Assembly: GCA_963728475.1 (NCBI GenBank)
Contig: CAVSKL010000003.1
Location: 310,001-374,000, forward strand
Reading direction: 5' to 3'
DNA: 64,000 bases
Source of the DNA: CAVSKL01 sp963728475 [NCBI: Candidatus Eiseniibacteriota bacterium]
GTDB taxonomy: Bacteria; Eisenbacteria; RBG-16-71-46; JABDJR01
Shown: in pieces, positions 26,957 to 40,330 of the stretch
Numbering within the stretch: the first letter of the stretch is position 1
Layout of the letters: every line of letters starts with the position of its first letter
Translations under genes and position numbers: made by a program
Notes under the pieces: model-generated
Databases searched by the model: none
The model's input: the letters and a program-made list of their open reading frames with translations, nothing else
What the model was told of the DNA's origin: nothing

Positions 26957-27004
26957 GCAGCCCCCCCGGCTTGGGAAAAGAGACAAACCCTGTAAGATGG
27001 TGCG

Positions 27005-29332
27005 ATGAGCGCGACCTCGGACTCCGACTCCCACCCCCCGCATCTTCCCGCCGGCCTCACCGAGACGGTGGGAGTCGTGGAGGCGATCCTGGGCGAGGTG
27101 GTGGCGGCGGCGGAGGGCGAGGATCTCTACGACGCGGTCGAGGCGATCCGCCGGGAGATGGTGGCGTTTCGCGAGGGCGCGGACATCGCCGCCCGGGAGG
27201 TGGCGCTGGAGCGGGCGGCCGAACTGCTCAACGCTCTCTCCATCGACGAACAGCTGGCGCTGGCGCGGGCCTATACGTTGTACCTGGAGCTGGTCAACGT
27301 GTGCGAGAACGCATACCGGACGCACCGGCTCCGGGAGCGGCTCCGCTCGCCCGCGGAGACCGGCGCCCGGGCGCGCCTCACCTTCGTCCTCACCGCCCAC
27401 CCCACGGAGTCGCGCTCCCCGGCGAGTATCCGGCTCCTGCGGCGGGTCCAGGACGAGATTGTTCAGGCGCTAGCCGGGTGCCGGCCGGTCAACCGGGCGG
27501 AGATCGAGAACCTTCTCCACGTGGCATGGCGGGTGGGGACCCATCCCCCGGCCAAGCCGTCGGTGGAGGACGAGGCGAACCACGTCTTCTCGCTCCTCAC
27601 CGACCCGATCCTCGCCGAGCTGGTGGAGCTGGCCGGGACCGGGCACCGGGTTCTCTTCCGCTCGTGGGTGGGGGGGGACAAGGACGGGCACCCGGGGGTG
27701 GGGCCGGACCAGACCCAGGCCGCCCTGAACCTGGCGCGGGCCCGGCTCCTGGCCTTTGTGGAGGGACGGCTCCTCGGGCCGGTCCGCACCGACGTGGAGC
27801 TGGCGGGGGGCGAGTCCGGCCGGAGCGCGCTGTCCACGCTGGAGAGCACGCTTGCCGCTCTGAAAATCGTGACCGCCGGCGACGGCGGCCGTGTTGCCGC
27901 CCTGCACCGGGCGATCGGCGCGTTCCAGGCGGCGTGGCGAACGCGGCTGGGGATCGACCACCCGGGGGTGGCGCGGCTCGGCATCTTGCTGAAGATCTTC
28001 CCGGCCCTGGTCGTCCCGCTGGAGTTCCGCGAGGAGCGGGGCCGCTTCGAAGCCGGCCGGCCGATCGGGGCGATGATGGGGCGAATCGCGGAGATCGCCC
28101 AAGGTGGGCGGATCGACGACTACGTCCGGGCCTGCGTGGTCAGCATGGCGCGCGAGGCGGGCGACCTGGCCGAGGCGGCACGGCTGGTCGGCGAGACCTT
28201 CGGCCGCCCCGCGATCCCGGTCATCCCCCTCTTCGAGCTTCCCGAAGTCCTCGAGCGCGCGACGGACATCCTGGGCGCGGCGTGGGCGGACGAGACGTTC
28301 CGCGCGGGGATCGAGGCCCGCGGCACCCTGGAGGTCATGCTCGGCTACTCGGACACGGCCAAGCGGATGGGGGTCCTGGCCAGCCGGGTGGCCCTCCACG
28401 CCGCGATGCGCAGGATCGCCGCCTGGGCCGACTCGGTGGGCGTGGCGGTCCTCTTCTTCCACGGCCACGGCGGGAGCGTGGGGCGGGGCGGCGGGCGGAT
28501 CGAGGACCTGGCCGCGTCCTGGCCGCCCGAAGCGCGCTCGCCCTACAAGTACACCGTCCAGGGCGAGATGGTCGAGCGCACACTGGCCACGCCGGAGATC
28601 CTCCGGAGCCTGGTCGAGAAGGTGGCCGCCGTCCAGGCCGTGCCGCCTCCCTATGCCGGGGCCGGCGGCTTCACGGCGGAGCTGGCGTGGGCGTCGCGGG
28701 ACGCCTTCGCCCGAACCGTGGCCTCGGAGGCATTCCGCGCCCTGCTCGAAAGCGCGACCCCCTACGCGCGGCTCAGCACGCTCACCATCGGCTCCCGGCC
28801 GTCCAGTCGGTCCAAGGCCGGCGGGCTGGCGGAGCTGCGCGCGATCCCGTGGGTCCTGTGCTGGACCCAGACCCGGCTCCTCCTCCACGCGTGGCTCGGG
28901 GTCGGCGCGGCGTGGCGGGAGATGCGCGAGCGCGACGGTGCCGGGGCCCGGCTCGCCGAGGCGTACCGCGAGGATCCGCTCTTCCGGTCCTACGCCCGGC
29001 TCCTGTCGTTCACGATGGCGAAGACCGCGCCCGAGGTCTGGCGGCGCTACCGGCGGGTTCTGGCGCCGGACGCCCCGGCGGATCTGACCGAGGCCCTGGA
29101 CGCGGACTTCGAAGCGGCAGTCGACCTGGCGCTCCGGGCCCGTGGCGGGGAGGAGCCCCTTCCGGAACGGCGCTGGCTCGCCGAGTCGATCCGCTACCGG
29201 GCCCCCATGATCCACCCCCTCAACCTCATCCAGATTGAGCTTCTGGCCAGGCCCGAATGGACCGAAGCCGAGGTCCGCCTCTTCCGCGAGACCGTGACCG
29301 GCATCGCCGCGGGGATGCTGACCACGGGGTAG
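27005..29332 (+). CDS. ppc: Phosphoenolpyruvate carboxylase, short form
   Basis: The 775-residue product makes oxaloacetate from PEP and bicarbonate, refilling the TCA cycle. Motifs in order are VLTAHPTES (His132), FRSWVGGDKDGHP, MLGYSDTAKRMGVLASR, LFFHGHGGSVGRGGG (486-488 region), KYTVQGEMVE and RAIPWVLCWTQTRLLLHAWLG. It is about 100 residues shorter than typical bacterial enzymes. The usual HGRGG loop reads HGHGG: the first Arg is His488, while the second Arg (GRGG) is kept. Several other flanking positions are diverged (KYTVQ for RVTEQ). The short length and loop change suggest a distinct subgroup, and loss of an allosteric segment is possible. Confidence 0.92.
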   Translation: MSATSDSDSHPPHLPAGLTETVGVVEAILGEVVAAAEGEDLYDAVEAIRREMVAFREGADIAAREVALERAAELLNALSIDEQLALARAYTLYLELVNVCENAYRTHRLRERLRSPAETGARARLTFVLTAHPTESRSPASIRLLRRVQDEIVQALAGCRPVNRAEIENLLHVAWRVGTHPPAKPSVEDEANHVFSLLTDPILAELVELAGTGHRVLFRSWVGGDKDGHPGVGPDQTQAALNLARARLLAFVEGRLLGPVRTDVELAGGESGRSALSTLESTLAALKIVTAGDGGRVAALHRAIGAFQAAWRTRLGIDHPGVARLGILLKIFPALVVPLEFREERGRFEAGRPIGAMMGRIAEIAQGGRIDDYVRACVVSMAREAGDLAEAARLVGETFGRPAIPVIPLFELPEVLERATDILGAAWADETFRAGIEARGTLEVMLGYSDTAKRMGVLASRVALHAAMRRIAAWADSVGVAVLFFHGHGGSVGRGGGRIEDLAASWPPEARSPYKYTVQGEMVERTLATPEILRSLVEKVAAVQAVPPPYAGAGGFTAELAWASRDAFARTVASEAFRALLESATPYARLSTLTIGSRPSSRSKAGGLAELRAIPWVLCWTQTRLLLHAWLGVGAAWREMRERDGAGARLAEAYREDPLFRSYARLLSFTMAKTAPEVWRRYRRVLAPDAPADLTEALDADFEAAVDLALRARGGEEPLPERRWLAESIRYRAPMIHPLNLIQIELLARPEWTEAEVRLFRETVTGIAAGMLTTG

Positions 29333-29487
29333 GCCCGGCGCTCCCGGCGGCACTCGACCGGCGCGCGGGGGGCTGCCCTCCGGGGCGCTTCGATTCCGCC
29401 CCCCCCGGAAGGCGGCGGGTCAGTCTTGGCACAGGACCAGCATCACCTCGGCAAGCTCCTCCGCCGGCTCACCCTCGACCCAGCGGG

Positions 29488-30582
29488 GACCGGCAGCTGG
29501 CGGTGCAGGGCCTGGTCCGGAAGTGGGTCCGGGAGTTCGAACTGGAGCCCCACCTGCGGCTGGGATGCGAGGTCTCGTCCGTTGCGTGGTCCGAGGACCA
29601 GTGGCGCGTGGATACGAACCGGGGGGAGTTGAGTTCCCGGTACCTGGTGGTGGCCTCCGGCGTCCAGAACGGGCCCCGGATCCCGAAGGTGGCGCGCAGG
29701 GACTCCGCCATCGACGAGCTTCATTCGTCGGGGCTGGAACGCCCGGAGGAACTGGCCGGAAAACGGGTGACCGTGGTCGGCGGCGGCGCCTCGGCCCTGG
29801 ACATGCTCGATCTGGCGGTCCGGAACGGCGCGACGGACATCCGGTGGGTGTACCGGGGTACGCGCTGGTTCTTTCCCTCGTCGAAGTCCAAGCAGGAGAA
29901 CCCGCTCAACAACCTCCGCCGGCTTTCCCTGTTCCAGACCCTGGGTAAGTCTCCGGCCGAGGTCTCGGCGAAGGTGCAGGGCGAGCTGGACAGGGAGTAC
30001 GAGCATTTCCGTCTGGAGAGCATCCGGCCCGCCTACGACATCGACTTCACCGAGCACCAGATCTTCCCGGGCCGCCCCGCCATGATCGGAAACCTGGACG
30101 CCATCTCGCGCCACCGAAGCGAGATCTCCGGACTGCAGGGGCACGAAGTCGTGCTGGAGAACGGCGACCGGTTCGAGACCGATTTCGTCCTGTGGGGGAC
30201 CGGGTACCGGATGAACCTGGACTATCTGGGGCTGCCGGAGTTCCACGGGGTCGAGACGGTGAAGCAGCTCTACCCGAAGCTCGGATCGCTGGTCCGCTCT
30301 CTCGACTATCCCAACCTTTTCTTCGTGGGGATGTGGGTGATCCAGAGCAACACCTCCACCCCTTTTGCCGCCGCCGTCGAGGCCAAGAGCATCGTCGCGC
30401 ACATGCAGGGCAGGTGTGAGATCCCGATGAGGAACATCCCGCACCAAGTCAATCACTGGAACCTCTTCCGGTTCTTCGCCGGGTTCGACCGCGCCACCTA
30501 TCCCCGGTATTGGTGGAAAATCGAGTACGGGTTGCTTGCCTTGTGGTACCTCGCGTTTCCGAACAAGCTGGTGAAAATATAG
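29488..30582 (+). pseudogene. 5'-truncated flavin-dependent monooxygenase-like protein
   Basis: The frame encodes about 365 recognisable residues beginning LAVQGLVRKWVREFELEPHL. It includes the NADP-binding motif RVTVVGGGASALDMLDLAV and the FMO-like end region FVLWGTGYRMNLDYLG. The N-terminal 90 to 120 residues that carry the FAD-binding GxGxxG of this family are absent: the frame runs back into ppc (stop at 29332) without any such motif, and no other frame supplies it. The remaining 1.1 kb is uninterrupted, with strong GC3 bias, so the loss looks recent. It would not bind FAD normally. Confidence 0.65.
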
Positions 30583-30748
30583 CCGCCCGCCCCGGCCGGC
30601 GCGTCGCGACCCCGTTTCCTCGAACTCTCTTGATCCCAAGCAGCGAACAACAGCTGGGCTTCCCGATCAAGGGGACCACGGACCCCGGTCTCCGCCGCCG
30701 TTTGTGCGAGCTATCTTGCTGTGAGACAATAAATTGTGAAATCTGTTC

Positions 30749-30777
30749 TTGACATACATAGTGACGCTATGTATCGT
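30749..30777 (+). promoter_or_regulatory. PadR-gene promoter with embedded palindromic operator
   Basis: TTGACA (30749-30754), a 17-base spacer and TATCGT (30772-30777) form a promoter 11 bases upstream of the PadR start. The spacer holds a perfect 8-bp inverted repeat, ATACATAG-TGACG-CTATGTAT (30754-30774). An ATGT/ACAT-type dyad overlapping the promoter is the classic PadR binding arrangement, so autorepression is very likely. Confidence 0.8.
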
Positions 30778-30787
30778 GGCGCAAGGT

Positions 30788-31156
30788 ATGGGCATCAACA
30801 AGGACCTCGTCGCCGCCTCCGCCACCCCTCTCGTCCTGGCCATCCTGGCCCAGGGCGACAGCTACGGCTATGCCATCCTGAAGCGGGTGAGCGAGCTGTC
30901 CGGGGGGAGCCTTGAGTGGAGCGACGGCATGCTCTACCCGGTGCTGCACCGGCTCGAACGCCTGGGCTACATCGCCGGAAAGTGGCAGAAGTCGGAGACC
31001 GGCCGGCGGCGCAAGTACTACCGGATCACCCCGGAGGGAAGAGGCCATCTCGCCGACGAGCGGCGGCAGTGGCAGGCGGTCGACGCCGCGCTCCGGAACG
31101 TGTGGTCGCTCCTGGCCGCCGGCGCCACCCCCAACCCTTTGCCCCAGGGAAGTTGA
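30788..31156 (+). CDS. PadR-family transcriptional repressor
   Basis: The product is 122 residues from the ATG at 30788 (AAGG just upstream); the frame runs back through its own promoter to 30749, which cannot be translated. The PadR winged helix is clear: LVLAILAQGDSYGYAILKRV, then GMLYPVLHRLERLGYIAGKW and RRKYYRITPEGRGHL. It probably represses its own promoter and the downstream membrane-protein gene, which starts 5 bases after its stop. Effector unknown. Confidence 0.92.
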   Translation: MGINKDLVAASATPLVLAILAQGDSYGYAILKRVSELSGGSLEWSDGMLYPVLHRLERLGYIAGKWQKSETGRRRKYYRITPEGRGHLADERRQWQAVDAALRNVWSLLAAGATPNPLPQGS

Positions 31157-31160
31157 TCAC

Positions 31161-32522
31161 ATGAACGAAAGCGCCGGCGCGATCGAGCGACAGATCCAGG
31201 AGTGGCGGCAGTTCGTCGCCCGCGCCCGGGCGATCGGGGACGCCGACGTCGAGGAACTCGAGGATCACCTCCGGGACCAGATCGAGGCCCTCACCGCCGC
31301 CGGTCTGGACGGCGACGAGGCCTTCCTGGTCGCGGTGAAGCGGATCGGGAGCCTGGACGCGCTTTCGCGCGAGTTCGCCCGGGAACACTCCGAACGTCTC
31401 TGGCGCCAGCTCGTGTTGGGAGGGGAGAGCGCGGCCGGGACGCCGGGGCGGGCCGAACCGCTCTTGGTGGTGGCGCTGGCGGCGGCGGCGGCGGCGGCGA
31501 TCAAGATTCCGACGCTTTTCGGCGTCCCCTTCGCGGACGCCGGCCAGGAATTTTATGCCCGGAACCTCGTCTTCTTCGTCCTCCCGTTCCTCACCGGTTA
31601 CCTGGCCTGGAAGCGGGGCCTCGGGGCCGGCCGCTTGGCCCGCCTGTTTGTCCCCTTCGCCGCGGCCGCCCTGCTGGTGAACCTTTATCCGTTCCAGCCC
31701 CAGGGACACACCTTCGTCCTGGCCGCGATCCATCTCCCCATCGCTCTGTGGCTGGTGGTGGGCCTTGCCTATGCCGGCTTCCGCTGGAGGGATTCGGACG
31801 AGCGCATGAACTTCGTCCGCTTCTCGGGCGAACTCTTCATCTATTACGTCCTCATCGCGCTCGGCGGGGGGGTGCTCTCGGGTTTCACGGGGGCGATGTT
31901 CCAGGCCATCGGCATCCATGCCGAGCCCTTCATCACGCAATGGCTCCTCCCCTGCGGCGCCATGGGGGCCGTGCTGGTCGGCTCGTGGCTGGTGGAAGCC
32001 AAGCAGGGCGTGATCGAGAACATGGCGCCGGTGCTCACCCGGATCTTCACCCCGCTTTTCACGCTCGTGCTTCTGGCATTTCTGGCGACCATGATCTGGA
32101 CGGGCCGAGGCATCGACGTGAAGCGCGAGGTGCTGATCGGCTTCGATCTCCTGCTCGCGGTGGTGCTCGGGCTCCTGCTCTACTCGGTGTCCGCCCGCGA
32201 TCCGCTCGCGCGCCCCGGCGCTTTCGACTTCGTCCAGCTCCTGTTGGTGGCGAGCGCGCTCGTGGCCGACATGGTGGCGTTGGTGGCCATCGCCGCGCGC
32301 ATCTCGGACTTCGGCTTCACCCCCAACCGCACCGCGGCCCTGGGCGAGAACCTCATCCTCCTCGTCAACCTCGGGTGGTCGGCCTGGCTCACCACGCGTT
32401 TCCTCCGCGGCCGGGCCCCGTTCGGCGCCCTGGAGCGGTGGCAGACCTCGTACCTCCCCGTTTATTCCTTGTGGGCCGCGGTAGTGGTCGCCGTCTTCCC
32501 GCTCATCTTCCGCTTTGCGTGA
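31161..32522 (+). CDS. Multi-span membrane protein paired with PadR
   Basis: The product is 453 residues from the ATG at 31161, 5 bases after the padR stop. Residues 1-85 form a soluble helical domain (RQIQEWRQFVARARAIGDAD, DVEELEDHLRDQIEALTAAG) like the permease-prefix domain found on PadR-linked membrane proteins. About ten membrane helices follow in a DUF4153-like arrangement. No catalytic motif is seen. It is co-regulated with PadR; a role in membrane stress or export is possible, but no substrate can be named. Confidence 0.8.
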   Translation: MNESAGAIERQIQEWRQFVARARAIGDADVEELEDHLRDQIEALTAAGLDGDEAFLVAVKRIGSLDALSREFAREHSERLWRQLVLGGESAAGTPGRAEPLLVVALAAAAAAAIKIPTLFGVPFADAGQEFYARNLVFFVLPFLTGYLAWKRGLGAGRLARLFVPFAAAALLVNLYPFQPQGHTFVLAAIHLPIALWLVVGLAYAGFRWRDSDERMNFVRFSGELFIYYVLIALGGGVLSGFTGAMFQAIGIHAEPFITQWLLPCGAMGAVLVGSWLVEAKQGVIENMAPVLTRIFTPLFTLVLLAFLATMIWTGRGIDVKREVLIGFDLLLAVVLGLLLYSVSARDPLARPGAFDFVQLLLVASALVADMVALVAIAARISDFGFTPNRTAALGENLILLVNLGWSAWLTTRFLRGRAPFGALERWQTSYLPVYSLWAAVVVAVFPLIFRFA

Positions 32523-32641
32523 ACCAGACCCCGGCCCGGGCGCGGGCATCCCGGGAATGGCGAGGAAATCCCCCGGGCCGTTCCGGCGGGCTCCGCGTCC
32601 GATTGACGCGCTCCCGGGCGGGGATGCTAACCTGAGAGGCG

Positions 32642-33217
32642 ATGACACGAACGAGGATCCATCTCACCCGTACCCTGGTGTTGGTAGCGCTGGCCGGCGC
32701 GATCGCGGCCGGGTGCAACAAGAGCACGGCCCCCAAGACCTCGGGTCCGGCTCTCGGGACCCTGGCGCCCGACTTCGCCATCCGCGACGTCAACCCCAAC
32801 TCGGCCCGCTACCAGGCCCCGGTCTCCCCGCGCGACTACTTCGGCCGGGTGTCCGCCTGGTACTTCGGCCACGCCACCTGAGGCTACTGCCGGAGCCAGT
32901 TCGGCTACCTCAACGATATCCAGCACGAGCTGGACGCCGAGAGCCTCCCGGTGGCGGTCTCCATCCTCGGCATCAACCCGCCCGGCCTGGATTCCGCCGA
33001 CAGCCTCATCTCCGCCGGGCGCACCATCGCCTGGCTGCAGGAAGAGGCTGGCGGCGACGACGCCTGGAGCGACTGGAAGGTCACCTATCGCGACGTGGTG
33101 ATCCTCGACTCCTCGAACGTGATCGTGGACGTCTACAACCTGACCGAGCACGACCTCGCGTCGGCCGCCAACCGGGACACGCTGAAACAGAAGCTCAGGG
33201 CCGCCGAAGCCCACTAG
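32642..33217 (+). CDS. Thioredoxin-fold lipoprotein, candidate selenoprotein (in-frame TGA at UxxC)
   Basis: The frame has 191 codons with one internal TGA at codon 80 (32879-32881) and a TAG at 33215-33217. The start is the ATG at 32642. Residues 1-25 form a lipoprotein signal with lipobox AAGC (Cys25). LGTLAPDFAIRDVN matches the beginning of redoxin/TlpA domains. The TGA falls in YFGHAT-[TGA]-GYCRSQFGYL, exactly where such proteins have the first Cys of C-x-x-C, giving U80-G-Y-C83. The frame then continues as normal thioredoxin fold with full codon bias (VAVSILGIN, VVILDSSNVIVDVYNLTEHD). Sec at this place would be redox-active in the periplasm. The alternatives are a nonsense mutation or a sequencing error, but a random stop landing exactly on the active-site Cys is unlikely. 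Confidence 0.8.
32879..32910 (+). promoter_or_regulatory. Possible bacterial SECIS hairpin after the TGA
   Basis: Seven bases beyond the TGA, GCCG (32889-32892) can pair with CGGC (32902-32905) around a 9-base loop. The stem base is thus at about the distance required of bacterial SECIS elements. An alternative GGCT/AGCC stem starts immediately after the TGA. The stem is short, so this is only a candidate. Confidence 0.35.
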
Positions 33218-33397
33218 CGGGCCGCCCATCCGGCTCCGGAGCGGCTTCCCAGGGGTCACGGCGAAGCGCGCGGGGTACGCGCTGGGGTTCCTCTGGAGAC
33301 CGCCGAGATGCGAGGGATGCGGCGCCGCTCCCTCTCCCGTTTGTGTGCGGGTCGTGGTCCCGTCACGGATCCGGGAGAGGGGGCGGCGCCGGAGAAT

Positions 33398-33889
33398 TCA
33401 GCCGTGGATCCGCTCGCCTCCGGTGGTCTCGAAGATCTCCCGGGCCTCCTTCCGGCGGTCGTCGTGAGCATAGACGCCGACCAGGATGCCGCCCTTCTCG
33501 ATCTGCTCGGAGTAGAGCTTCGCCTCGTGCTCCGGGATGCCCAGCCCGATCAGACCCCCGATGAATCCGCCGGCCGCCCCTCCCGCTCCGGCTCCGGCCA
33601 GAGCGGCCACGATCGGCCCCGCAGCCACCAGGGCGACTCCGGGTACCAGGAAGACCCCCGTCGCGACCAGGCCGGCCGCCACCGCTCCCAGCACGCCCCC
33701 GGTCACGGCGCCGATGGTCGCGCCCTCGGGGGCCTTCGTCTCCTCCTCGATGGCGAACTCCCGGCCCCGGGTGGCGTCGGTGAGGACAAAGCTGATGTCG
33801 TTGCGCGAATATCCCGCGTCCGTGAGGAGCGCCACGGCCTCCATGGCGGCTTCGCGGGTGTGGTAAATGGCGGTAATGGACTTGGACAT
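33398..33889 (-). CDS. YflT-like general stress protein
   Basis: The product is 163 residues from the ATG at 33889 (GGAGG 6 bases upstream). The N-terminal domain SITAIYHTREAAMEAVALL is the fold of the general stress protein 17M/YflT family. A long Gly/Ala-rich hydrophobic hairpin follows (GAVTGGVLGAVAAGLVATG, GAGAGGAAGGFIGGLIGLG), then ILVGVYAHDDRRKEAREIFE. Members are induced by general stress; the glycine-zipper segment may insert into membranes. The gene stands alone with a GC-rich heptamer repeat upstream. Confidence 0.75.
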   Translation of the reverse strand: MSKSITAIYHTREAAMEAVALLTDAGYSRNDISFVLTDATRGREFAIEEETKAPEGATIGAVTGGVLGAVAAGLVATGVFLVPGVALVAAGPIVAALAGAGAGGAAGGFIGGLIGLGIPEHEAKLYSEQIEKGGILVGVYAHDDRRKEAREIFETTGGERIHG

Positions 33890-33990
33890 GACGACCTCCA
33901 TGATGGTATCGGTTAATCGACGAAGCTGAATCGGACCCGTCCTGATACCTTCATTAGAAACTTGCCGGGCGGGCGGCACAAGAGAATTCG

Positions 33991-34039
33991 GCCGCTGGCC
34001 GCTGGCCGCTGGCCGCGCGCCGCTGGCCGCGCGCCGCTC
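33991..34039. repeat. Seven tandem copies of a 7-bp unit (GCCGCTG)
   Basis: Perfect copies are at 33991, 33998, 34005 and 34019; variants (GCCGCGC, GCCGCTC) fill the rest of the array. It lies about 100 bases upstream of the YflT-like gene, in the 380-bp gap 33905-34285, which otherwise shows no gene. It is a slippage-prone microsatellite that could vary in length between strains. Confidence 0.8.
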
Positions 34040-34285
34040 GCCGGAGCCCGCCACCGCCCCCGCCCGGAAAAGGGGCTGAGTCGACCGGAACCGGGGAGTA
34101 GGATTTATGGGCGCCCGGTTCCCATCTGCCTCCGCCGGACGCCCCGTGCCCTGCCCGGATGTACGGGTTCCGGCGTTCCCTCACGGCGTTCCGGGCCGGG
34201 GATCTCGGGAACCGGACGGGTCCGGGCGACGGGCATGGGCTCTCGTATCGATCCGATCACGCCCCCAAACGGAAGGAGTCCTCAC

Positions 34286-34591
34286 ATGCGTTTCCTCATG
34301 CACGTCACGTTTCCGCACGAGCCCTTCAACAAATTCACGCGGGACGGGAAGATGGGCCAGAAGATGGGTCAGCTCCTGGAGGCGACCAAGCCCGAAGCCG
34401 CGTACTTTTGCGCCATGAACGGCAAGCGCGGCGGGTTTCTGGTGGTCGACCTGAAGGAGCCCTCGGACATGGCACGCTACGCGGAGCCGTGGTTCCTTTC
34501 CCTCAACGCGGACGTGGAATTTCTTCCCGCGATGACGCCCGAAGATATCCAGAAGGCGAACCTCGACGATATCGGAAAGTCGTGGAGGTAG
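34286..34591 (+). CDS. Small conserved alpha/beta protein (DUF3303/YCII-like)
   Basis: The product is 101 residues from the ATG at 34286, with AAGGAG about 9 bases upstream. It begins MRFLMHVTFPHEPFNKFTRD and has an alternating strand-helix pattern (AAYFCAMNGKRGGFLVVDL, then DVEFLPAMTPEDIQKAN). This resembles small ferredoxin-like dimeric alpha/beta-barrel proteins of the DUF3303/YCII kind; the family call is tentative. No signal peptide, no known motif. A strong terminator follows 37 bases later. Confidence 0.65.
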   Translation: MRFLMHVTFPHEPFNKFTRDGKMGQKMGQLLEATKPEAAYFCAMNGKRGGFLVVDLKEPSDMARYAEPWFLSLNADVEFLPAMTPEDIQKANLDDIGKSWR

Positions 34592-34627
34592 GCCGCCTCG
34601 GCCTGAACGCGATCCAGGCATCCCGAT

Positions 34628-34666
34628 CCGAGTCCCGGGGGCGGCCCCCCCGGGACTCGGCTATTT
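34628..34666 (+). terminator. Strong intrinsic-type terminator
   Basis: CCGAGTCCCGGGGG (34628-34641) pairs perfectly with CCCCCGGGACTCGG (34647-34660) over 14 bp with a 5-base loop; CTATTT follows. It closes the small alpha/beta gene and separates it from the remnant on the other strand. Confidence 0.75.
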
Positions 34667-34711
34667 CACCGTCCGCGGGAATCCGCGCCGGAACCTCCGC
34701 GATCGGTCCCG

Positions 34712-34960
34712 TCACCCCCCTCCTGCCGCCGCCCGCACATACCGCGCCCCGTTCGCGAGGTTGAAGTTGACTACGCCGGTGAAGGTGCCGGCTCCGTCCC
34801 CTCCCAGGATTCCCTGGGGCGGGAGCACCGGGCCGAGGAACTGGTTGGAGGCATGGTTGTGATTCGCGTTGTTCACGAACGCACACACGCTGATGTCCCC
34901 GCACTGTGGTTGTCGCCGAACCCCGTCTGGGCGGCCCGGACCGAGGAAGCGGCGCCGTAA
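34712..34960 (-). pseudogene. 3' remnant of a secreted protein gene, frameshifted
   Basis: On the minus strand, one frame reads AASSVRAAQTGFGDN. After a shift of frame near 34900 another reads CGDISVCAFVNNANHNHASN, then GTFTGVVNFNLANGARYVRA, and stops at 34714-34712. The two pieces join naturally (FGDN-QCGDIS) if two bases are removed, so this is the C-terminal part of a broken gene. No start or signal peptide remains upstream. The style (small Cys pair, Asn-rich loops) fits an extracellular protein with a thiol or Omp28-like domain, but the family is not certain. The rest of the 34592-35142 gap is empty. Confidence 0.45.
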
Positions 34961-35142
34961 CCGTCATGCTCCAGCGTTGGAGGGCGACCGGCTTTTCGCG
35001 AACCGGTCCCCCTCGGCTCGATGGTGGAAACCGGCGGGAACGACCTGGTGGCGCCCCGGCCGGGACACGGGAAACCCCGAGGGCGCCCGCCCCCGGGGTT
35101 CTCCTGCTGACCGGCGCCGGCTCGGGAGGGCCGGACCGTCCG

Positions 35143-36255
35143 CTAAACCACCGCCACCTTGACCACGTTGATGGGCGGCAGGGACTCGAACAGGCACTCC
35201 CACTCTTCGCCCCCCTCGCGCCCCATCCAGAGCTGTCCGGTGGTGGTTCCGAAGTAGAGCGCGGGGGTCTTGAGCTCGTCCACGTCCATGCCGTCCCGCA
35301 GCACGGTGAAGTAGCTTTCCTTCTTGGGAAGCCCCTTGGAGAGCTTCTTCCAGGAGTCGCCGCCGTTCTCGCTTCGCCAGACTCCCGGGGAGGCGCCGGG
35401 GCAGGTCCGGGTCATGGGCTCCAACGGGAGCACGTAGACGGTATCCGCGTCGTGCGGGTGGACTGCGATGGGAAAGCCGAAGTCCGAGGGAAGCCCCCTG
35501 GCGATGGAGCGCCAGGTCTTGCCGTGGTCGTCGCTCCGGAGCACCCCGATGTCGGGCCGCCGCCCCCCCGGGCCGTCCCACTCCCCCCAGCCGCCATGGT
35601 TCTGCATGTAGAGCCGTCCGGGCGCATCCTTGTGCCCGGCGATCTTGTGCACGCACTGGCCGAACTCGGGATAGGGATCGGGGGAAAAGCCGGCCCCCAC
35701 CCCCTGGTTGGACGCCTCGAACGTCTTCCCGTCATCCTCGCTCAGGTAATGGCCGCCGGTCGAGATCCCGAGGTGCACCCGGTCCCCGTCACGGAGGATC
35801 GTGTGCATGCAGAGCCCGCCGTTCCCCGGCTGCCACTTCCGCGAGTGCTCATGATTGCTGATGCTATCGACCAGCTCCCATGAGTTCCCTCCGTCGCCGC
35901 TCCGGAAGAGCGACGCCGGCTCGACTCCGGCCCAGACCTCCTTCTTGCCCGGCCCCGGCTCCAGCGACCAGATGTTGGCCAGCGCCCGGCCGTCGTCGGC
36001 AGGGAAGGCCGGCGCCGACTTGGTCTCCTTGAACGTTTTCCCCAGATCGGTCGAGCGCAGCACCTTCATGCCGAAGAACGGGTTGCAGCTCGAGGCGAGA
36101 ATCTGGGGCTTGCCGCGGGTGTCGATGAGCGCGGAATAGACCGGAACCCCCGGGCCGAACGGCCCGCGAAGCGCGAACTTCTTGCGGGACTTGGCCCCTT
36201 CGGCCACGAACAATCCCTTCTTGGTTCCGATGGCGAGGACGACGCGGTCGGCCAT
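35143..36255 (-). CDS. BNR/sialidase-type beta-propeller protein
   Basis: The product is 370 residues from the ATG at 36255. AGGAGG 6 bases upstream is formed by the Gly-Gly codons of the preceding gene; a TTG at 36261 overlapping that stop is the alternative. Several Asp-box repeats are present (RSTDLGKTF, RSGDGGNSWE, LSEDDGKTFE, RSDDHGKTWR, RSENGGDSWK), giving a BNR propeller as in sialidases and sortilin-like proteins. There is no signal peptide, so it is cytoplasmic, unlike true sialidases, and the catalytic Arg triad cannot be assigned. It is translationally linked to a ubiquitin-fold protein ending in Gly-Gly. Function unknown. Confidence 0.85.
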   Translation of the reverse strand: MADRVVLAIGTKKGLFVAEGAKSRKKFALRGPFGPGVPVYSALIDTRGKPQILASSCNPFFGMKVLRSTDLGKTFKETKSAPAFPADDGRALANIWSLEPGPGKKEVWAGVEPASLFRSGDGGNSWELVDSISNHEHSRKWQPGNGGLCMHTILRDGDRVHLGISTGGHYLSEDDGKTFEASNQGVGAGFSPDPYPEFGQCVHKIAGHKDAPGRLYMQNHGGWGEWDGPGGRRPDIGVLRSDDHGKTWRSIARGLPSDFGFPIAVHPHDADTVYVLPLEPMTRTCPGASPGVWRSENGGDSWKKLSKGLPKKESYFTVLRDGMDVDELKTPALYFGTTTGQLWMGREGGEEWECLFESLPPINVVKVAVV

Positions 36256-36257
36256 GT

Positions 36258-36545
36258 TCAACCTCCTGAAACGGCGGGCACGATGAGGATCACGTCTCCC
36301 GGGGAAAGCGCGGACTCGAGTCCTTCGAGGTCGCGCACGTGGGTCGAGTTCACGAAGATGTTCAGATGGCGCCGGACCGCGCCCGTTTCGTCGCAGATGT
36401 TCCGGTAGAGCGCAGGGTGACTCGCGGCGAGTTGCTCCAGGGCGGCGCCGACGGTGGGGGCGGACAGCGCCAGGTCCGAGGCCCCGTCGCAGTAGGCGCG
36501 GAGAACGGTGGGAACCCAGACTTTGATGGTCGCGGTGTCCGGCAT
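36258..36545 (-). CDS. ThiS/MoaD-like ubiquitin-fold protein ending in Gly-Gly
   Basis: The 95-residue product has a beta-grasp pattern (TIKVWVPTVLRAYCDGA, VGAALEQLAASHPAL, RRHLNIFVNSTHVRDLEGL, GDVILIVPAVSGG). The exposed C-terminal Gly-Gly is where E1-like enzymes adenylate MoaD/ThiS proteins to form thiocarboxylates or isopeptide conjugates. No E1-like or molybdopterin/thiamin gene lies nearby, so it is not an ordinary cofactor gene here. It directly precedes and overlaps the ribosome site of the BNR propeller gene. Confidence 0.85.
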   Translation of the reverse strand: MPDTATIKVWVPTVLRAYCDGASDLALSAPTVGAALEQLAASHPALYRNICDETGAVRRHLNIFVNSTHVRDLEGLESALSPGDVILIVPAVSGG

Positions 36546-36664
36546 GCCCGAAAGGACGGCTCCGTGGCGAAGGGTAATAAACGACCGGGAGTGTCGGATA
36601 TTCTACTCCACACCCGGGGGCCGGTCCATGAACTTGAGATCCCCCCGTGGGGCGACCCGGCCCG

Positions 36665-37009
36665 CTAGGCCGAGAAGTCGCAGTCGGGCGGGGAGAAGGG
36701 GAGCGGGCCCCGGGAGGGGTCCCATCCGTGGATCCCCTTGAGGACCTCCTCCACGAACCAGCGGTCGAACGGGGCTTCGGAGGCGAGCATGGCGGCGAAA
36801 GCCTTCGGCAGGTCCTCGGCCTCCATGTAGACCGCCACCAGGTCGCCCTGGGGCGTGCTCTGCAACCCCACCACCTCCCGCTTCACCCCGATCCGGCGGC
36901 GGGCTTCCTCGTACTCCTTCCGGCGGGGTCCGTTGATGCTGGCCATCGCCTCCTTCCAGGCCTCGGTCTTGCCCGGGAGAATCGGGACCGCGAACGTCGA
37001 GACTGCCAT
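36665..37009 (-). CDS. Conserved protein, DUF6176-like
   Basis: The product is 114 residues from the ATG at 37009, with GGAG 8 bases upstream; a long in-frame extension to 38197 runs antisense to another gene and is not real. The sequence MAVSTFAVPILPGKTEAWKE, then GPRRKEYEEARRRIGVKREV and LVAVYMEAEDLPKAFAAML, resembles a small ferredoxin-like stand-alone family (DUF6176). The ligand and function are unknown. It is divergent from an exported FlgD-tail protein and shares its upstream region. Confidence 0.7.
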   Translation of the reverse strand: MAVSTFAVPILPGKTEAWKEAMASINGPRRKEYEEARRRIGVKREVVGLQSTPQGDLVAVYMEAEDLPKAFAAMLASEAPFDRWFVEEVLKGIHGWDPSRGPLPFSPPDCDFSA

Positions 37010-37192
37010 GGGTTCACTCCTTCCTGGGGGTACAGGTGAGTCCGAACGGGAGAGAAGGGAGCCCTCGCCGCCGGTAGGGGCGGGGCCCGGGAAAGCGAGT
37101 GGCCAGTCTACACGCCGCCCGGACTGGGAGACAGGGGAGGGCCCGAGACCCGGCCGGTATTCGGTCGCCCCCGGCCCACGCGCAAAAACAGT

Positions 37193-37221
37193 TTGTTTTG
37201 CACCCGAACAAAGTGTATGCT
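37193..37221 (+). promoter_or_regulatory. Promoter block with 13-bp motif shared with 40478-40507
   Basis: TTGTTT (37193-37198), a 17-base spacer and TATGCT (37216-37221) point at the gene at 37340. The 13 bases CGAACAAAGTGTA (37205-37217) are repeated exactly at 40491-40503, again about 130 bases before the start of an exported protein. The 330-bp gap 37010-37339 shows nothing else. Confidence 0.55.
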
Positions 37222-37339
37222 CTGGAAGGAATTTGCGCGACTTTCGTCTCTTCCACGCGGTGGATCGCCGGACGCGCAACGCGCTCGCCCCGAGGGCTCG
37301 GCCGGCGCGGGTGGATTCACCCACAGGGAGGTCACTACC

Positions 37340-38314
37340 ATGCTGACTCGGGCTACTGCGGTGCTCACGGTGGTCGTGCTGCTGTGCGCGGTCACCGCTA
37401 CCGGCTTCGCCGTCACTCCCTACAGCCAGGACTTCGAGAGCCTGACCCAGTCGGACTCGAACGCCCTGGCCAACGACGGCTGGCTGGTCTACGGCAACGT
37501 CTACGCGCCGGACACGACGTACCTCTACGGGTACGGCCCCTATCCGGCTCCCAACCACAACCTCGCCTTCTGCCAGATCGTGGCCGGCGAGGGCGGCGTC
37601 GACCAGGGCAACCAACAGCTCTCGGTGTTCAGTGACTACGAGAACACCGATCACGCCAGCGGCGACCTCATCGAGTCGAACGTCTACCGCGAGTGGACGA
37701 TCAGCAGCGCCGACACCGGGTTGGTGTGGACCTTCGCCTTCCAGGCCAAGCGCGGGAACATCCAGGACGCCTCCACCGCCGCGGCCTTCATCAAGACCCT
37801 GGATCCGAACAACGGTTACGCCACCACCAATTTCCTGACCGTGAAGACGACCGCCATCGACACCACCTGGGCCGGCTACCGGATCCAGCTCAACGTGGGC
37901 TCGGGCCTGGCGGGCCAGCTCTTCCAGATCGGCTTCGTGAACACGGCCACCCACTACGAGGGATCGGGGATCTTCTACGACAACGTGGCCCTCAGCTCGT
38001 CGAGCGCGACCGGCGTTCCCGACGCCGAGAGGTTCGTGGGCGCGACGCTGGCGGCCAACTATCCCAACCCGTTCAGCCCCAGCACCCGGATCGACTTCAC
38101 GATGAAGGCGGTGGGGCAGGCGGAGGTCTCGGTCTTCGACCTGGCGGGCCGCAAGGTCGCCTCCCTGGCCGATGGCACGTTCACCGCCGGCGAGCACACG
38201 GTGAGCTGGAACGGGCGGACCGACGACGGAGCTCCCGCCGCCGCCGGCCAGTACTGGTACGTGCTGCGGACGCCGACCGGCCGGGTCGCCCGCTCCATGA
38301 CCCTGCTTCGCTGA
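37340..38314 (+). CDS. Exported protein with FlgD/Ig-like C-terminal sorting module
   Basis: The product is 324 residues from the ATG at 37340 (GGGAGG upstream). A signal peptide (ATAVLTVVVLLCAVTATGFA) is followed by a beta-sandwich body to about residue 235 (YSQDFESLTQSDSNALANDG, then GYRIQLNVGSGLAGQLFQIG), jelly-roll in style. The last 85 residues form a FlgD/T9SS-type-A-like module: NYPNPFSPSTRIDFTMKAVG, EVSVFDLAGRKVASL, GEHTVSWNGRTDDG, GQYWYVLRTPTGR. Such modules mark secreted or cell-surface proteins in FCB bacteria. No catalytic site is seen. A hairpin terminator follows. Confidence 0.8.
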   Translation: MLTRATAVLTVVVLLCAVTATGFAVTPYSQDFESLTQSDSNALANDGWLVYGNVYAPDTTYLYGYGPYPAPNHNLAFCQIVAGEGGVDQGNQQLSVFSDYENTDHASGDLIESNVYREWTISSADTGLVWTFAFQAKRGNIQDASTAAAFIKTLDPNNGYATTNFLTVKTTAIDTTWAGYRIQLNVGSGLAGQLFQIGFVNTATHYEGSGIFYDNVALSSSSATGVPDAERFVGATLAANYPNPFSPSTRIDFTMKAVGQAEVSVFDLAGRKVASLADGTFTAGEHTVSWNGRTDDGAPAAAGQYWYVLRTPTGRVARSMTLLR

Positions 38315-38371
38315 ACCGTTTTCCGCCCCGGAGCCGGGAAGGCTGGTTCCGGTTCGGAGAGGCCGACGACA

Positions 38372-38405
38372 GACCGGTCGGACGCCAAGGTCCGGCCGGT
38401 CTTTC
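38372..38405. terminator. Hairpin between convergent genes
   Basis: GACCGGTCGG (38372-38381) pairs with CCGGCCGGTC (38392-38401) over 10 bp with one G-U pair, and TTTCC follows. It lies in the 117-bp gap between the FlgD-tail gene and the convergent GH16 gene and probably serves the plus-strand gene. Confidence 0.65.
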
Positions 38406-38431
38406 CGTGACCCGATGCGCGCGGCGCGGGA

Positions 38432-40330
38432 TCAGCGAACCACCGTGACCCGCTTCGTCTCGGAGATCCCGCCCGCGTCCAGGCGGTAGAAGTACACACC
38501 CGAACGGACCCGCCGCCCGCTCCCGTCCCGTCCGTCCCAGGTGGCCCGTCCCGCCCCGGCCGGCATCCACTCGCCACGAACGAGGGAACGGATCAACCGC
38601 CCGGAGACGTCGTACACGTCGAGGTGGACCGCTCCGGCCCCGGGAAGCGTGTAGCGGATGACGGTGGAGGAGGTGAACGGGTTGGGCATTCCCGCGGAGA
38701 GGGTATAGCCCTCCCGGACGCCGCCGCCGGCGACCCCGCCCGCGTCGCCGGAGAACGCCAGGTAGTTGAGGTTGAACCCGGCGCTCTCGATGGCCACCCG
38801 CAGGGTCTGGGTCCCCGCGGCCAGCTCCACCGGGGTCGAGACCGTGGTCCAGTTCTGCCAGGCTCCGGTGACCGGCACGGTCAGCGTCCCGGTCTTGTCC
38901 ACGCCGTTCACCTCGACCCGGAACGCCCCGCCGGAGGACTCTGACGCCACCCGGGTGTCCAGGGTGTACGCGCCGGCCGCCGGCACCTCGATGGTGTACT
39001 CCAGCCACTCCCCCGCGTTGGTCCACCCCACGTCGTACCCGCCGCCGGCGTCCGAGCACGCCTCCAGGTCCACCCCCTCGCCGGCGCGGTATTGCCCGCC
39101 GTTGTTCGAGGCGTCCTGGTCGTGGTAGGCCACGCCCTCGCCCCCGTCGTCGTAGTCCTCCGCCTCGATCCGGGCGGGAAGCGCGAACGGCGTACCGTGA
39201 TAGGGAGCCCGCCCGCAGCCGGCGCCGACTGTGATCTCCACCGCGTCGGTGGCCTCCCCGCCCAGGTTGTCCAGCGCCCGCGCCGTGAGCTGGTAGCAGC
39301 CGTCGGGGACCGCGCTCCAGGTGAAGCTGTAGGGGGCGGTGGCGTCCGCGCCCAGGTAGTTCGACCCGTCGTAGAACTCGACCGACGCCACCGTCCCGTC
39401 CGGGTCCGAGGCGTCGGCGGTCACGGTGACGTCGCCGGCGGGAAGGTCCGCCCCCCAGGCGGGGGAGGTGATGGCCACGGTGGGAAGGGCGTTGGGGATG
39501 TCCTCGTAGACCCGCACGTAGTCCACCAGGTACTGCTGGGGGAAGCTCGCGCCGACGCAGCCGGGGTCGGTGCAGCCGGTGTAGTTCCCGCCCACCGCGA
39601 GGTTGAGGAGGATGTAGAAGGGTTGATCGAACGGGGCCCGCGCGTCGCCGGGGGCGCCGTCGGAGTACCACTGGGAGCTGGTCCGGGAGAAGTACAGCGT
39701 TCCGTCCACGTACCAGCGGATCTCGTCGGGGTCCCACTCCACCGCGTAGACGTGGAAGCCGTCGGCGAAGCTCCCGCCGCCCAGGGAATGGGAGCCGGTG
39801 GAGTAGGTGTTGTTCGGCCACTGGCCGCCGAAGTGGATCGTGCCGCCCACCGAGGTCATGGCGTTGGCGGCCTCCATGATGTCGATCTCGCCGCTGGCCG
39901 CCCATCCCCCGTAGACGTCGCTTTCGGGCATCATCCAGAAGGCCGGCCACATGCCGCCGCCCACGGGGAGCCTGGCCCGCATCTCGACCCGGCCGTAGAG
40001 CACGGTGCGCTTCCCCCGGGTGTGGATCTTCCCCGAGGTGAACGAGGCCCCGCCGTAGGACTCGGCCTTGGCGGTGAGTACGAGGTTCCCCCCGGAAACG
40101 GACACGTTCCGGGTCAGGTAGTACTCGAGTTCGCTGTTGCCCCAACCGCAGAGGTTCGGGCACCCGGTCCCGGTGTCGACGGTCCAGGAGCCGGTGTCGA
40201 GGGTCGTGCCGTTGAACTCATCCGCCCAGACCAGGGACCAGCTCGCCTCGACCCGGGCGGCGGGGGCGGCGGCGGCCAGCACCCCCAGGGCGATGACCCC
40301 CGCCTTCTTGAACGATCTCCACGCAATCAC
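38432..40330 (-). CDS. Secreted GH16 beta-glucanase with Ig, CBM6 and FlgD-like modules
   Basis: The 632-residue product starts at a GTG (AAGGGG upstream). A signal peptide (VIALGVLAAAAPAARVEA) is followed by a GH16 domain (about 31-280) with the catalytic signature GEIDIMEA (Glu148, Asp150, Glu153). The laminarinase-like segment GKIHTRGKRTVLYGRVEMRA and MWPAFWMMPE are also visible. Then come a bacterial Ig-like domain (about 285-370, VAITSPAWGADLPAGDVTVT), a CBM6-type module (about 385-530, IEAEDYDDGG, NAGEWLEYTIEV) and a FlgD-like C-terminal module (GMPNPFTSSTVIRYTL ... DVYDVSGRLIRSL). It would cut beta-1,3(-1,4)-glucans outside the cell, probably held at the surface. Confidence 0.93.
   Translation of the reverse strand: MIAWRSFKKAGVIALGVLAAAAPAARVEASWSLVWADEFNGTTLDTGSWTVDTGTGCPNLCGWGNSELEYYLTRNVSVSGGNLVLTAKAESYGGASFTSGKIHTRGKRTVLYGRVEMRARLPVGGGMWPAFWMMPESDVYGGWAASGEIDIMEAANAMTSVGGTIHFGGQWPNNTYSTGSHSLGGGSFADGFHVYAVEWDPDEIRWYVDGTLYFSRTSSQWYSDGAPGDARAPFDQPFYILLNLAVGGNYTGCTDPGCVGASFPQQYLVDYVRVYEDIPNALPTVAITSPAWGADLPAGDVTVTADASDPDGTVASVEFYDGSNYLGADATAPYSFTWSAVPDGCYQLTARALDNLGGEATDAVEITVGAGCGRAPYHGTPFALPARIEAEDYDDGGEGVAYHDQDASNNGGQYRAGEGVDLEACSDAGGGYDVGWTNAGEWLEYTIEVPAAGAYTLDTRVASESSGGAFRVEVNGVDKTGTLTVPVTGAWQNWTTVSTPVELAAGTQTLRVAIESAGFNLNYLAFSGDAGGVAGGGVREGYTLSAGMPNPFTSSTVIRYTLPGAGAVHLDVYDVSGRLIRSLVRGEWMPAGAGRATWDGRDGSGRRVRSGVYFYRLDAGGISETKRVTVVR

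What the first reader, a model, noticed from the sequence alone, without database searches (positions are those of the whole stretch)
32642..33217. New selenoprotein candidate: periplasmic thioredoxin-fold lipoprotein with U-x-x-C
One in-frame TGA (32879) interrupts an otherwise fully coding 191-codon frame exactly at the first active-site position of a redoxin/TlpA-like protein (HAT-TGA-GYC). Codon bias and fold continue on both sides, and a short stem can form about 10 bases downstream. Sec at U-x-x-C is an established redox motif; its use in a membrane-anchored, likely periplasmic lipoprotein is uncommon.
Basis: partly seen in the sequence, partly recalled or inferred. Interest (0 to 1): 0.92.

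Follow-up and report, generated by a model that had tools for sequence, protein, structure and literature searches.

The report
Bacterial selenoprotein of known TUGYCR family
This gene most likely uses a stop signal to insert selenocysteine into the active site of an exported redox protein; it belongs to a family already catalogued by NCBI, but its sister family in myxobacteria resembles the working end of the animal selenium carrier selenoprotein P.

Summary
In detail: window 32642-33217 is one frame broken only by TGA at 32879-32881. The reading, selenocysteine in a U-x-x-C thioredoxin-fold, probably lipid-anchored protein, is well supported, but the family is not new: NCBIfam NF053656 "TUGYCR motif thioredoxin fold (seleno)protein" scores 204.7 bits, cut-off 100. 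In family searches 76 of 88 matches over the cut-off contain one TGA; 8 of the others have Cys in the column. A hairpin 10 bases after the TGA covaries across 88 TGA sequences (514 of 528 pairs; synonymous-codon null 448±5); 0 of 8 Cys homologues keep it whole. In Myxococcota, SelB occurs in 48 of 51 genomes with a TGA copy, 169 of 326 others. The window's own genome is not held, so its sel genes are untested; its hairpin has one mismatch and a rival fold is more stable. The model is a confident TlpA/ResA-like fold. Likely role: exported thiol-disulfide oxidoreductase, partner unknown. A sister TGA family in Myxococcota passes Pfam SelP_N, selenoprotein P's N-terminal domain, in 41 of 377 genomes. 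That link is the interesting part.

The parts
32634..32639 (+). purine-rich GAGAGG, a possible but closely spaced ribosome-binding site (2 bases before the ATG)
   Evidence: sequence; by eye only
32642..33217 (+). selenoprotein gene, 191 codons plus TAG; NF053656 redoxin_TUGYCR domain at residues 43-187
32642..32716 (+). probable lipoprotein signal peptide, residues 1-25 (...LAGAIAAG|C25)
   Evidence: sequence; lipobox-like pattern in 40 of 75 family members; low pLDDT in residues 1-30
32879..32881 (+). TGA read as selenocysteine (residue 80)
32888..32890 (+). resolving Cys83 (TGC) of U-x-x-C
   Evidence: Cys in 88 of 88 distinct TGA sequences of 100 bits or more
32892..32909 (+). SECIS-like hairpin: 5' arm 32892-32897 GGAGCC, loop 32898-32902 AGUUC, 3' arm 32903-32909 with A32907 mismatched to G32893 or bulged
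   Evidence: 5 of 6 family pairs formed; the window alone folds better in another register

Best explanation
The gene encodes a selenoprotein of the NF053656 (TUGYCR) family. During translation the UGA at 32879 is decoded as selenocysteine because a hairpin that begins 10 bases downstream (5-base AGUUC loop, 16 bases from the UGA to the loop) recruits SelB with Sec-tRNA. The product is exported, probably lipid-anchored at Cys25, and folds as a TlpA/ResA-like thioredoxin domain with Sec80-Gly-Tyr-Cys83 at the start of a helix. Sec80 would attack a disulfide or other oxidised substrate and Cys83 would resolve the mixed bond as a selenenylsulfide. Shown by computation: family membership, TGA conservation, Cys in the same column, hairpin covariation, SelB co-occurrence in relatives, fold. 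Inferred: SelB recruitment in this organism, export and lipidation, the chemistry. Not known: the substrate and the reductase, as no conserved neighbour was found.
For: NF053656 match 204.7 bits, E 5.8e-61, cut-off 100; 40 of 40 aligned members match it at E<=1e-5. Family searches: 76 of 88 matches over the cut-off contain one TGA, namely 57 of 66 in 377 Myxococcota genomes, 15 of 18 in 392 Planctomycetota genomes, 2 of 2 in 5 genomes and 2 of 2 in 7 genomes; the place of the TGA was read only in the fetched ones. Of 99 distinct sequences of 100 bits or more read here, 88 have TGA, 8 Cys, 2 Ser, 1 Ala in the column; 49 of the 88 come from a pattern scan that demanded TGA, 38 from the family searches, 1 is the window. 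Hairpin: 514 of 528 pairs kept against 448±5 (maximum 463 of 2000) under synonymous-codon shuffling; 79 of 88 full stems against at most 42; Cys homologues keep 25 of 48 pairs and 0 of 8 full stems. A count on 60 of the 88 gives 96.7% paired, 51 cells changed on both sides, 0 of 500 shuffles as high; RNAalifold finds the same hairpin unprompted. SelB at E<=1e-60 in 48 of 51 Myxococcota genomes with a TGA copy against 169 of 326 others, Fisher p 1.1e-9, not corrected for kinship. AlphaFold2 pLDDT 91.5, pTM 0.81; best solved matches DsbE 3gl3 Z 17.8 and, third, ResA 2h1b Z 17.1.
Against: The window's genome is not held, so no sel gene was tested in it. In the window pair +15/+29 is G.A, shared by 4 of the other 87 TGA sequences; the family hairpin reaches only -7.9 kcal/mol, with a bulged A, while the isolated 42 bases prefer another register at -14.2. 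Three of 51 Myxococcota genomes with a TGA copy show no SelB; of the 20 handed-in genomes, G008 shows none of SelA, SelB, tRNA-Sec, and G020 (L031, a 3.8 Mb single contig) has SelA but neither SelB nor tRNA-Sec over the cut-off. The near-invariant Pro of LPWLQ is Ala in the window. No protein evidence exists.
Confidence: 0.88

Rival explanations
1. The TGA is a true stop and the gene is a decaying pseudogene or encodes only a 79-residue peptide.
For: One stop in frame; the window's copy of the hairpin is imperfect; one relative with TGA (G020) lacks SelB and tRNA-Sec over the cut-offs and another (G008) lacks SelA too.
Against: 76 of 88 family matches contain one TGA and it lies in the same column in the 88 distinct TGA sequences read; the 110 residues after it are conserved, including W131, Q133, R150 and D151; no other stop interrupts the window's frame.
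Confidence: 0.04
2. TGA is read as another residue (altered code or general suppression), or it is a sequencing error for TGC or TGT.
For: Cys codons do occur in this column in 8 homologues.
Against: 88 distinct sequences carry TGA, so an error is not needed; in 23 of 52 homologous pattern-scan loci the same frame ends in TGA, so TGA looks like a terminator there; a full stem is kept in 79 of 88 TGA sequences and 0 of 8 Cys ones.
Confidence: 0.02
3. It is a selenoprotein, but its role is peroxidase-like (peroxiredoxin or glutathione peroxidase chemistry) and not disulfide exchange.
For: Peroxiredoxins (Bcp4, AhpE, Tsa1, Prx) score nearly as high in the structure comparison, Z about 15.5-16.9; of two chains matched by the family profile at E<=0.01 one is glutathione peroxidase 7, E 0.0018, with the U column on its active Cys, the other a flagellin-hook repeat protein that looks spurious; the near-invariant R150 in YRDVVILD recalls the conserved Arg of peroxiredoxins (recalled, from no call).
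Against: Sec is followed by Cys at +3 in 88 of 88, as in TlpA-type reductases; the top structural neighbours are DsbE, a Bacillus thiol-disulfide oxidoreductase and ResA, though Z values within 1 are ties; AhpC-TSA and Redoxin cut-offs are not met by the window.
Confidence: 0.3

Closest known systems
NCBIfam NF053656 redoxin_TUGYCR
   Same: Matches residues 43-187 at twice the cut-off; same T-U-G-Y-C-R motif.
   Different: Nothing of substance; the window is a member. No held paper contains the word TUGYCR.
TlpA / ResA / DsbE thiol-disulfide oxidoreductases
   Same: Fold (3gl3 Z 17.8, ResA 2h1b Z 17.1), active pair spacing, probable membrane anchor.
   Different: Sec replaces the first Cys; identity about 13-19%; below Pfam AhpC-TSA and Redoxin cut-offs.
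Selenoprotein P N-terminal domain (Pfam PF04592 SelP_N)
   Same: The window family's sister group matches SelP_N and has U-x-x-C; sister and window families align over 161 columns with U on U.
   Different: The window and its own family do not match SelP_N; [quoted passage not shown]
'Redoxin family protein', UxxC, in Table 1 of PMC13188914
   Same: Redoxin with U-x-x-C predicted as a prokaryotic selenoprotein (passages seen).

Membership tests
NF053656 redoxin_TUGYCR | score over the curated cut-off of 100 bits | tested here: met
   204.7 bits
NF053656 redoxin_TUGYCR | T-U-G-Y-C-R motif | tested here: met
   HAT-TGA-GYCRSQ
bacterial selenoprotein | in-frame TGA in a column where homologues have Cys | tested here: met
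   88 TGA, 8 Cys, 3 other among 99 distinct sequences
bacterial selenoprotein | bSECIS: 3-9 base loop, 4-16 pair upper stem, G in first two loop positions, 16-37 bases from UGA to loop, energy <= -7.5 (PMC13188914, Fig 2 legend seen) | tested here: met
   5-base loop AGUUC, 16 bases, 6 pairs with one bulge, -7.9 kcal/mol on the 22 bases of the hairpin; but the 42-base fold prefers another register
bacterial selenoprotein | selA, selB, selC, selD in the same genome | not testable with these tools
   no genome held for the window; relatives only; selD was not searched
bacterial selenoprotein | Sec detected in the protein | not testable with these tools
   needs 75Se label or mass spectrometry
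TlpA/ResA-like thiol-disulfide oxidoreductase | thioredoxin fold with redox pair at helix start | tested here: met
   model pLDDT 91.5; helix 81-99 follows U80
TlpA/ResA-like thiol-disulfide oxidoreductase | cis-Pro opposite the active site | tested here: inconclusive
   the YRDVVILD strand appears to carry Arg or Asp there, compared with ResA from memory; model geometry not inspected
Pfam AhpC-TSA / Redoxin | gathering score | tested here: not met
   17.1 against 26 and 15.3 against 26.6
SelP_N (PF04592) | gathering score, window protein | tested here: not met
   no match listed up to E 1; not among families matched by the 40 aligned members at E<=0.01
SelP_N (PF04592) | gathering score, sister family | tested here: met
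   41 of 377 Myxococcota genomes over the cut-off, 0 of 14 control genomes with a match; 30 of 32 aligned members match at E<=0.01
bacterial lipoprotein | lipobox with Leu-like residue at -3 | tested here: inconclusive
   window has IAAG-C; crude pattern in 40 of 75 relatives

The most novel reading that the evidence does not exclude
The window's family and a sister family of myxobacterial U-x-x-C selenoproteins form one bacterial selenoprotein superfamily with a shared SECIS geometry, and the sister family is the closest known bacterial kin, possibly the source, of the Sec-bearing N-terminal domain of animal selenoprotein P. The Sec of that domain would then be an inherited bacterial trait and not an animal invention on a Cys-type TlpA scaffold.
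Probability: 0.4. Interest if true: 0.75.

Novelty: new member of a known kind. Interest (0 to 1): 0.5.

Why it matters
The gene itself adds one more case to a catalogued selenoprotein family; such genes are often mis-annotated as truncated at the TGA (PMC13188914, passage seen). The reach is wider: Lobanov et al. 2008 (PMC2397514; abstract passage, section 7 read) called selenoprotein P a protein of unclear origin and tied its N-terminal domain to bacterial TlpA/ResA, which have CxxC, by fold prediction. Bacterial selenoproteins that pass the SelP_N cut-off and carry their own SECIS-like hairpin would give that question concrete, testable relatives, and simple bacterial proteins in which to study what the U-x-x-C domain does.

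Tried and rejected
Sel genes in the window's own genome: not possible, none held. Peptide-based scans of genome contigs and viral contigs with the window protein found no relatives, nor did plasmids by tblastn with the protein or megablast with window 26000-39000; the DNA pattern scan worked. ARAGORN found no tRNA and Rfam no family over its gathering score in the window.

Taxon of the window: not settled. Two other window proteins gave best matches of 27% and 36% identity, scattered over several phyla, in the 24 and 23 genomes searched. The nearest family member among those compared is L002, titled Gemmatimonadetes bacterium HKST-UBA01 (59%, 62%).

Conserved neighbourhood: none found. All-against-all comparison of ORFs within up to 5 kb of 88 distinct TGA members (many loci hold only about 1.5 kb on each side) gave, among the 25 largest clusters printed, the gene itself with overlapping ORFs in other frames, one cluster of 8 loci that looks like protein kinases by eye, and clusters of 2 or 3 loci. 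Nine nearby window ORFs, several in frames that look non-coding, had no match at E<=1e-4 in the loci then held.

Other TGA-interrupted genes in the window: a crude codon-bias scan listed two places, neither with U-x-x-C or C-x-x-U; it missed the known gene itself, so it is weak.

Literature: TUGYCR is in no held paper. Searches for bacterial selenoprotein P homologues, of which I saw listings only, showed none on bacterial SelP-like selenoproteins; the word SelP is absent from the 2026 and 2022 reviews of prokaryotic selenoproteins (word search and passages). The held library lacks most subscription papers, so this does not prove absence. Haft and Tolstoy 2025 is not held (nothing seen).

Not done: selD search; a tree with real selenoprotein P sequences (I had none in hand and typed none from memory); inspection of model coordinates.

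Full report
What was checked. The frame 32642-33217 encodes 191 codons and a TAG with a single internal TGA at 32879-32881, codon 80. The window is 69% GC and long chance frames are common, so the open frame alone is weak. Third-position GC is 0.91 before and 0.94 after the TGA. The decisive result is homology: with TGA read as U the protein matches NCBIfam NF053656, 'TUGYCR motif thioredoxin fold (seleno)protein', over residues 43-187 with 204.7 bits against a cut-off of 100. Pfam gives only sub-threshold AhpC-TSA, SCO1 and Redoxin matches.

Relatives. Peptide-based scans found nothing. A degenerate DNA pattern for F-G-x-x-T-TGA-G-Y-C-R hit 58 stretches of genome contigs; 52 of 58 are homologous to the window protein (one of these cut off just after the motif) and 6 look like chance. 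Record titles include Planctomycetota, Myxococcota, Verrucomicrobia, Latescibacterota and Eisenbacteria. That set demands TGA by design, so I also searched with the family model, which does not. The genomes there are unnamed; I take the phyla of L017 and L003 as Myxococcota and Planctomycetota from the record titles. Over its cut-off the model matched 55 of 377 Myxococcota genomes (66 matches, 57 with one TGA), 15 of 392 Planctomycetota (18 matches, 15 with one TGA), and 2 of 5 and 2 of 7 genomes in the phyla of L002 and L038 (all 4 matches with one TGA): 76 of 88 matches. Of the 12 without TGA, 8 have Cys, 1 Ala and 2 Ser in the column; 1 partial match was not read. The two Ser domains are the first halves of tandem proteins whose second half has TGA (L020, L050). 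Among 99 distinct sequences of 100 bits or more by a profile built here, 88 have TGA, and Cys at U+3 is present in 88 of 88; 49 of the 88 are from the TGA-demanding pattern.

SECIS. In the 88 TGA sequences a 6-pair stem, +14 to +19 with +25 to +30 (T of TGA = +1), with loop AGUUU or AGUUC in 81 of 88, keeps 514 of 528 pairs. Shuffling synonymous codons within columns among sequences of equal residue gives 448±5, maximum 463 of 2000; full stems are 79 of 88 against a maximum of 42. The 8 Cys homologues keep 25 of 48 pairs and 0 full stems; one, L106, still has 5 of 6. On an alignment of 60 of the 88, 5 of 6 pairs have changes on both sides and 0 of 500 shuffles reach the covariation score; slid controls pair 26-54% of cells against 96.7%. 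These counts ignore relatedness. RNAalifold recovers the same stem without prompting. The geometry meets the published bSECIS limits: 16 bases from UGA to loop, 5-base loop with G second followed by U (PMC13188914, passages seen). In the window itself pair +15/+29 is G.A, as in 4 of the other 87; a version with one bulged A has -7.9 kcal/mol, and another register is more stable in isolation, -14.2 kcal/mol, z -2.45.

Machinery. The window's genome is not held. G008 shows none of the three; G017 and G020 show SelA only, and G020 is a single 3.8 Mb contig. In 377 Myxococcota genomes SelB (E<=1e-60) is in 217: 48 of 51 with a TGA copy, 169 of 326 others, p 1.1e-9. Of four Myxococcota genomes with only a Cys copy three also have SelB. 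Kinship is not corrected for.

Fold and function. AlphaFold2 on 40 sequences gives pLDDT 91.5, pTM 0.81, with lower confidence before about residue 30. The best-scoring solved structures are DsbE 3gl3 (Z 17.8, 2.1 Å over 138 residues), a Bacillus thiol-disulfide oxidoreductase 4nmu (17.2) and ResA 2h1b (17.1), with peroxiredoxins close behind. Sec80 lies just before helix 81-99. I read it as an exported thiol-disulfide oxidoreductase; peroxidase-like activity is the live rival. No conserved gene neighbourhood was found, so the partner is unknown.

Sister family. Below the NF053656 cut-off, Myxococcota hold further TGA proteins with motifs such as ALLAGWUSYCVSQAG and GGxKDDxxIYD. Of ten such low-scoring TGA proteins scanned, NF053656 gives 51-82 bits on nine and Pfam SelP_N, the N-terminal region of selenoprotein P, 30-51 bits on seven against a cut-off of 23.2. 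SelP_N searched in the 377 Myxococcota genomes is over its cut-off in 41, 28 of them with a copy holding TGA, and matches 0 of 14 control genomes. Of 37 distinct sequences read, 25 have TGA and 12 Cys in the column; I left five of the 37 (L147-L150, L185) out of the alignment A3. Profile comparison with the window's family: probability 99.9, E 2e-32, 161 columns, U on U and C on C. The sister TGA genes have the hairpin at the same place, loop AGGCU in 19 of 25: 131 of 150 pairs against 117±2, maximum 126 of 2000; full stems 19 of 25, and 0 of 12 in the Cys copies. SelB is in 25 of 28 genomes with a TGA copy, p 2.5e-4. A quick tree of 72 sequences puts the two families on two sides of one branch with support 100 and needs 11 changes between U and non-U; its root is unknown. 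The window's own family does not match SelP_N, the sister family also matches Redoxin (31 of 32) and AhpC-TSA (30 of 32), and no animal sequence was compared, so kinship to selenoprotein P rests on the Pfam model and needs a proper tree.

Verdict. The window gene is a well-supported selenoprotein of a known family: new member of a known kind. The sister family and its SelP_N signature are the part worth following.

Noticed in passing
L151-L154, L157, L158, L161-L165, L168-L179 and others of A3 (Myxococcota); L124 (Planctomycetota): Sister family, mostly TGA (U-x-x-C) with some Cys members such as L166, L167, L172, that matches Pfam SelP_N (selenoprotein P N-terminal) and, in TGA members, carries a SECIS-like hairpin of the same geometry with loop AGGCU.
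   Followed up: partly
L155, L156: A further pair of TGA proteins with motif HGYUPTC, below the NF053656 cut-off and without a SelP_N match at E<=0.001, next to the sister group in the tree.
   Followed up: partly
L020 (Ser codon at 2167, TGA at 2626) and L050: Tandem TUGYCR proteins whose first domain has Ser and Ala in place of the redox pair while the second keeps TGA and Cys.
   Followed up: no
L031 / G020: Single-contig Phycisphaerales genome with a TGA family member and SelA but no SelB or tRNA-Sec over the cut-offs.
   Followed up: no
window frame ending at 32522: Upstream same-strand membrane protein with an N-terminal stretch like permease-prefix domains (by eye); no Pfam match in 31140-32519.
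   Followed up: no
window 33398-34054, minus strand: Downstream convergent gene for a glycine- and alanine-rich protein with a YflT match over its cut-off and an ActD match under it.
   Followed up: no
L133 (Planctomycetota): Another TGA at the first active-site position (WUGPC) of a ResA-like protein, outside this family.
   Followed up: no
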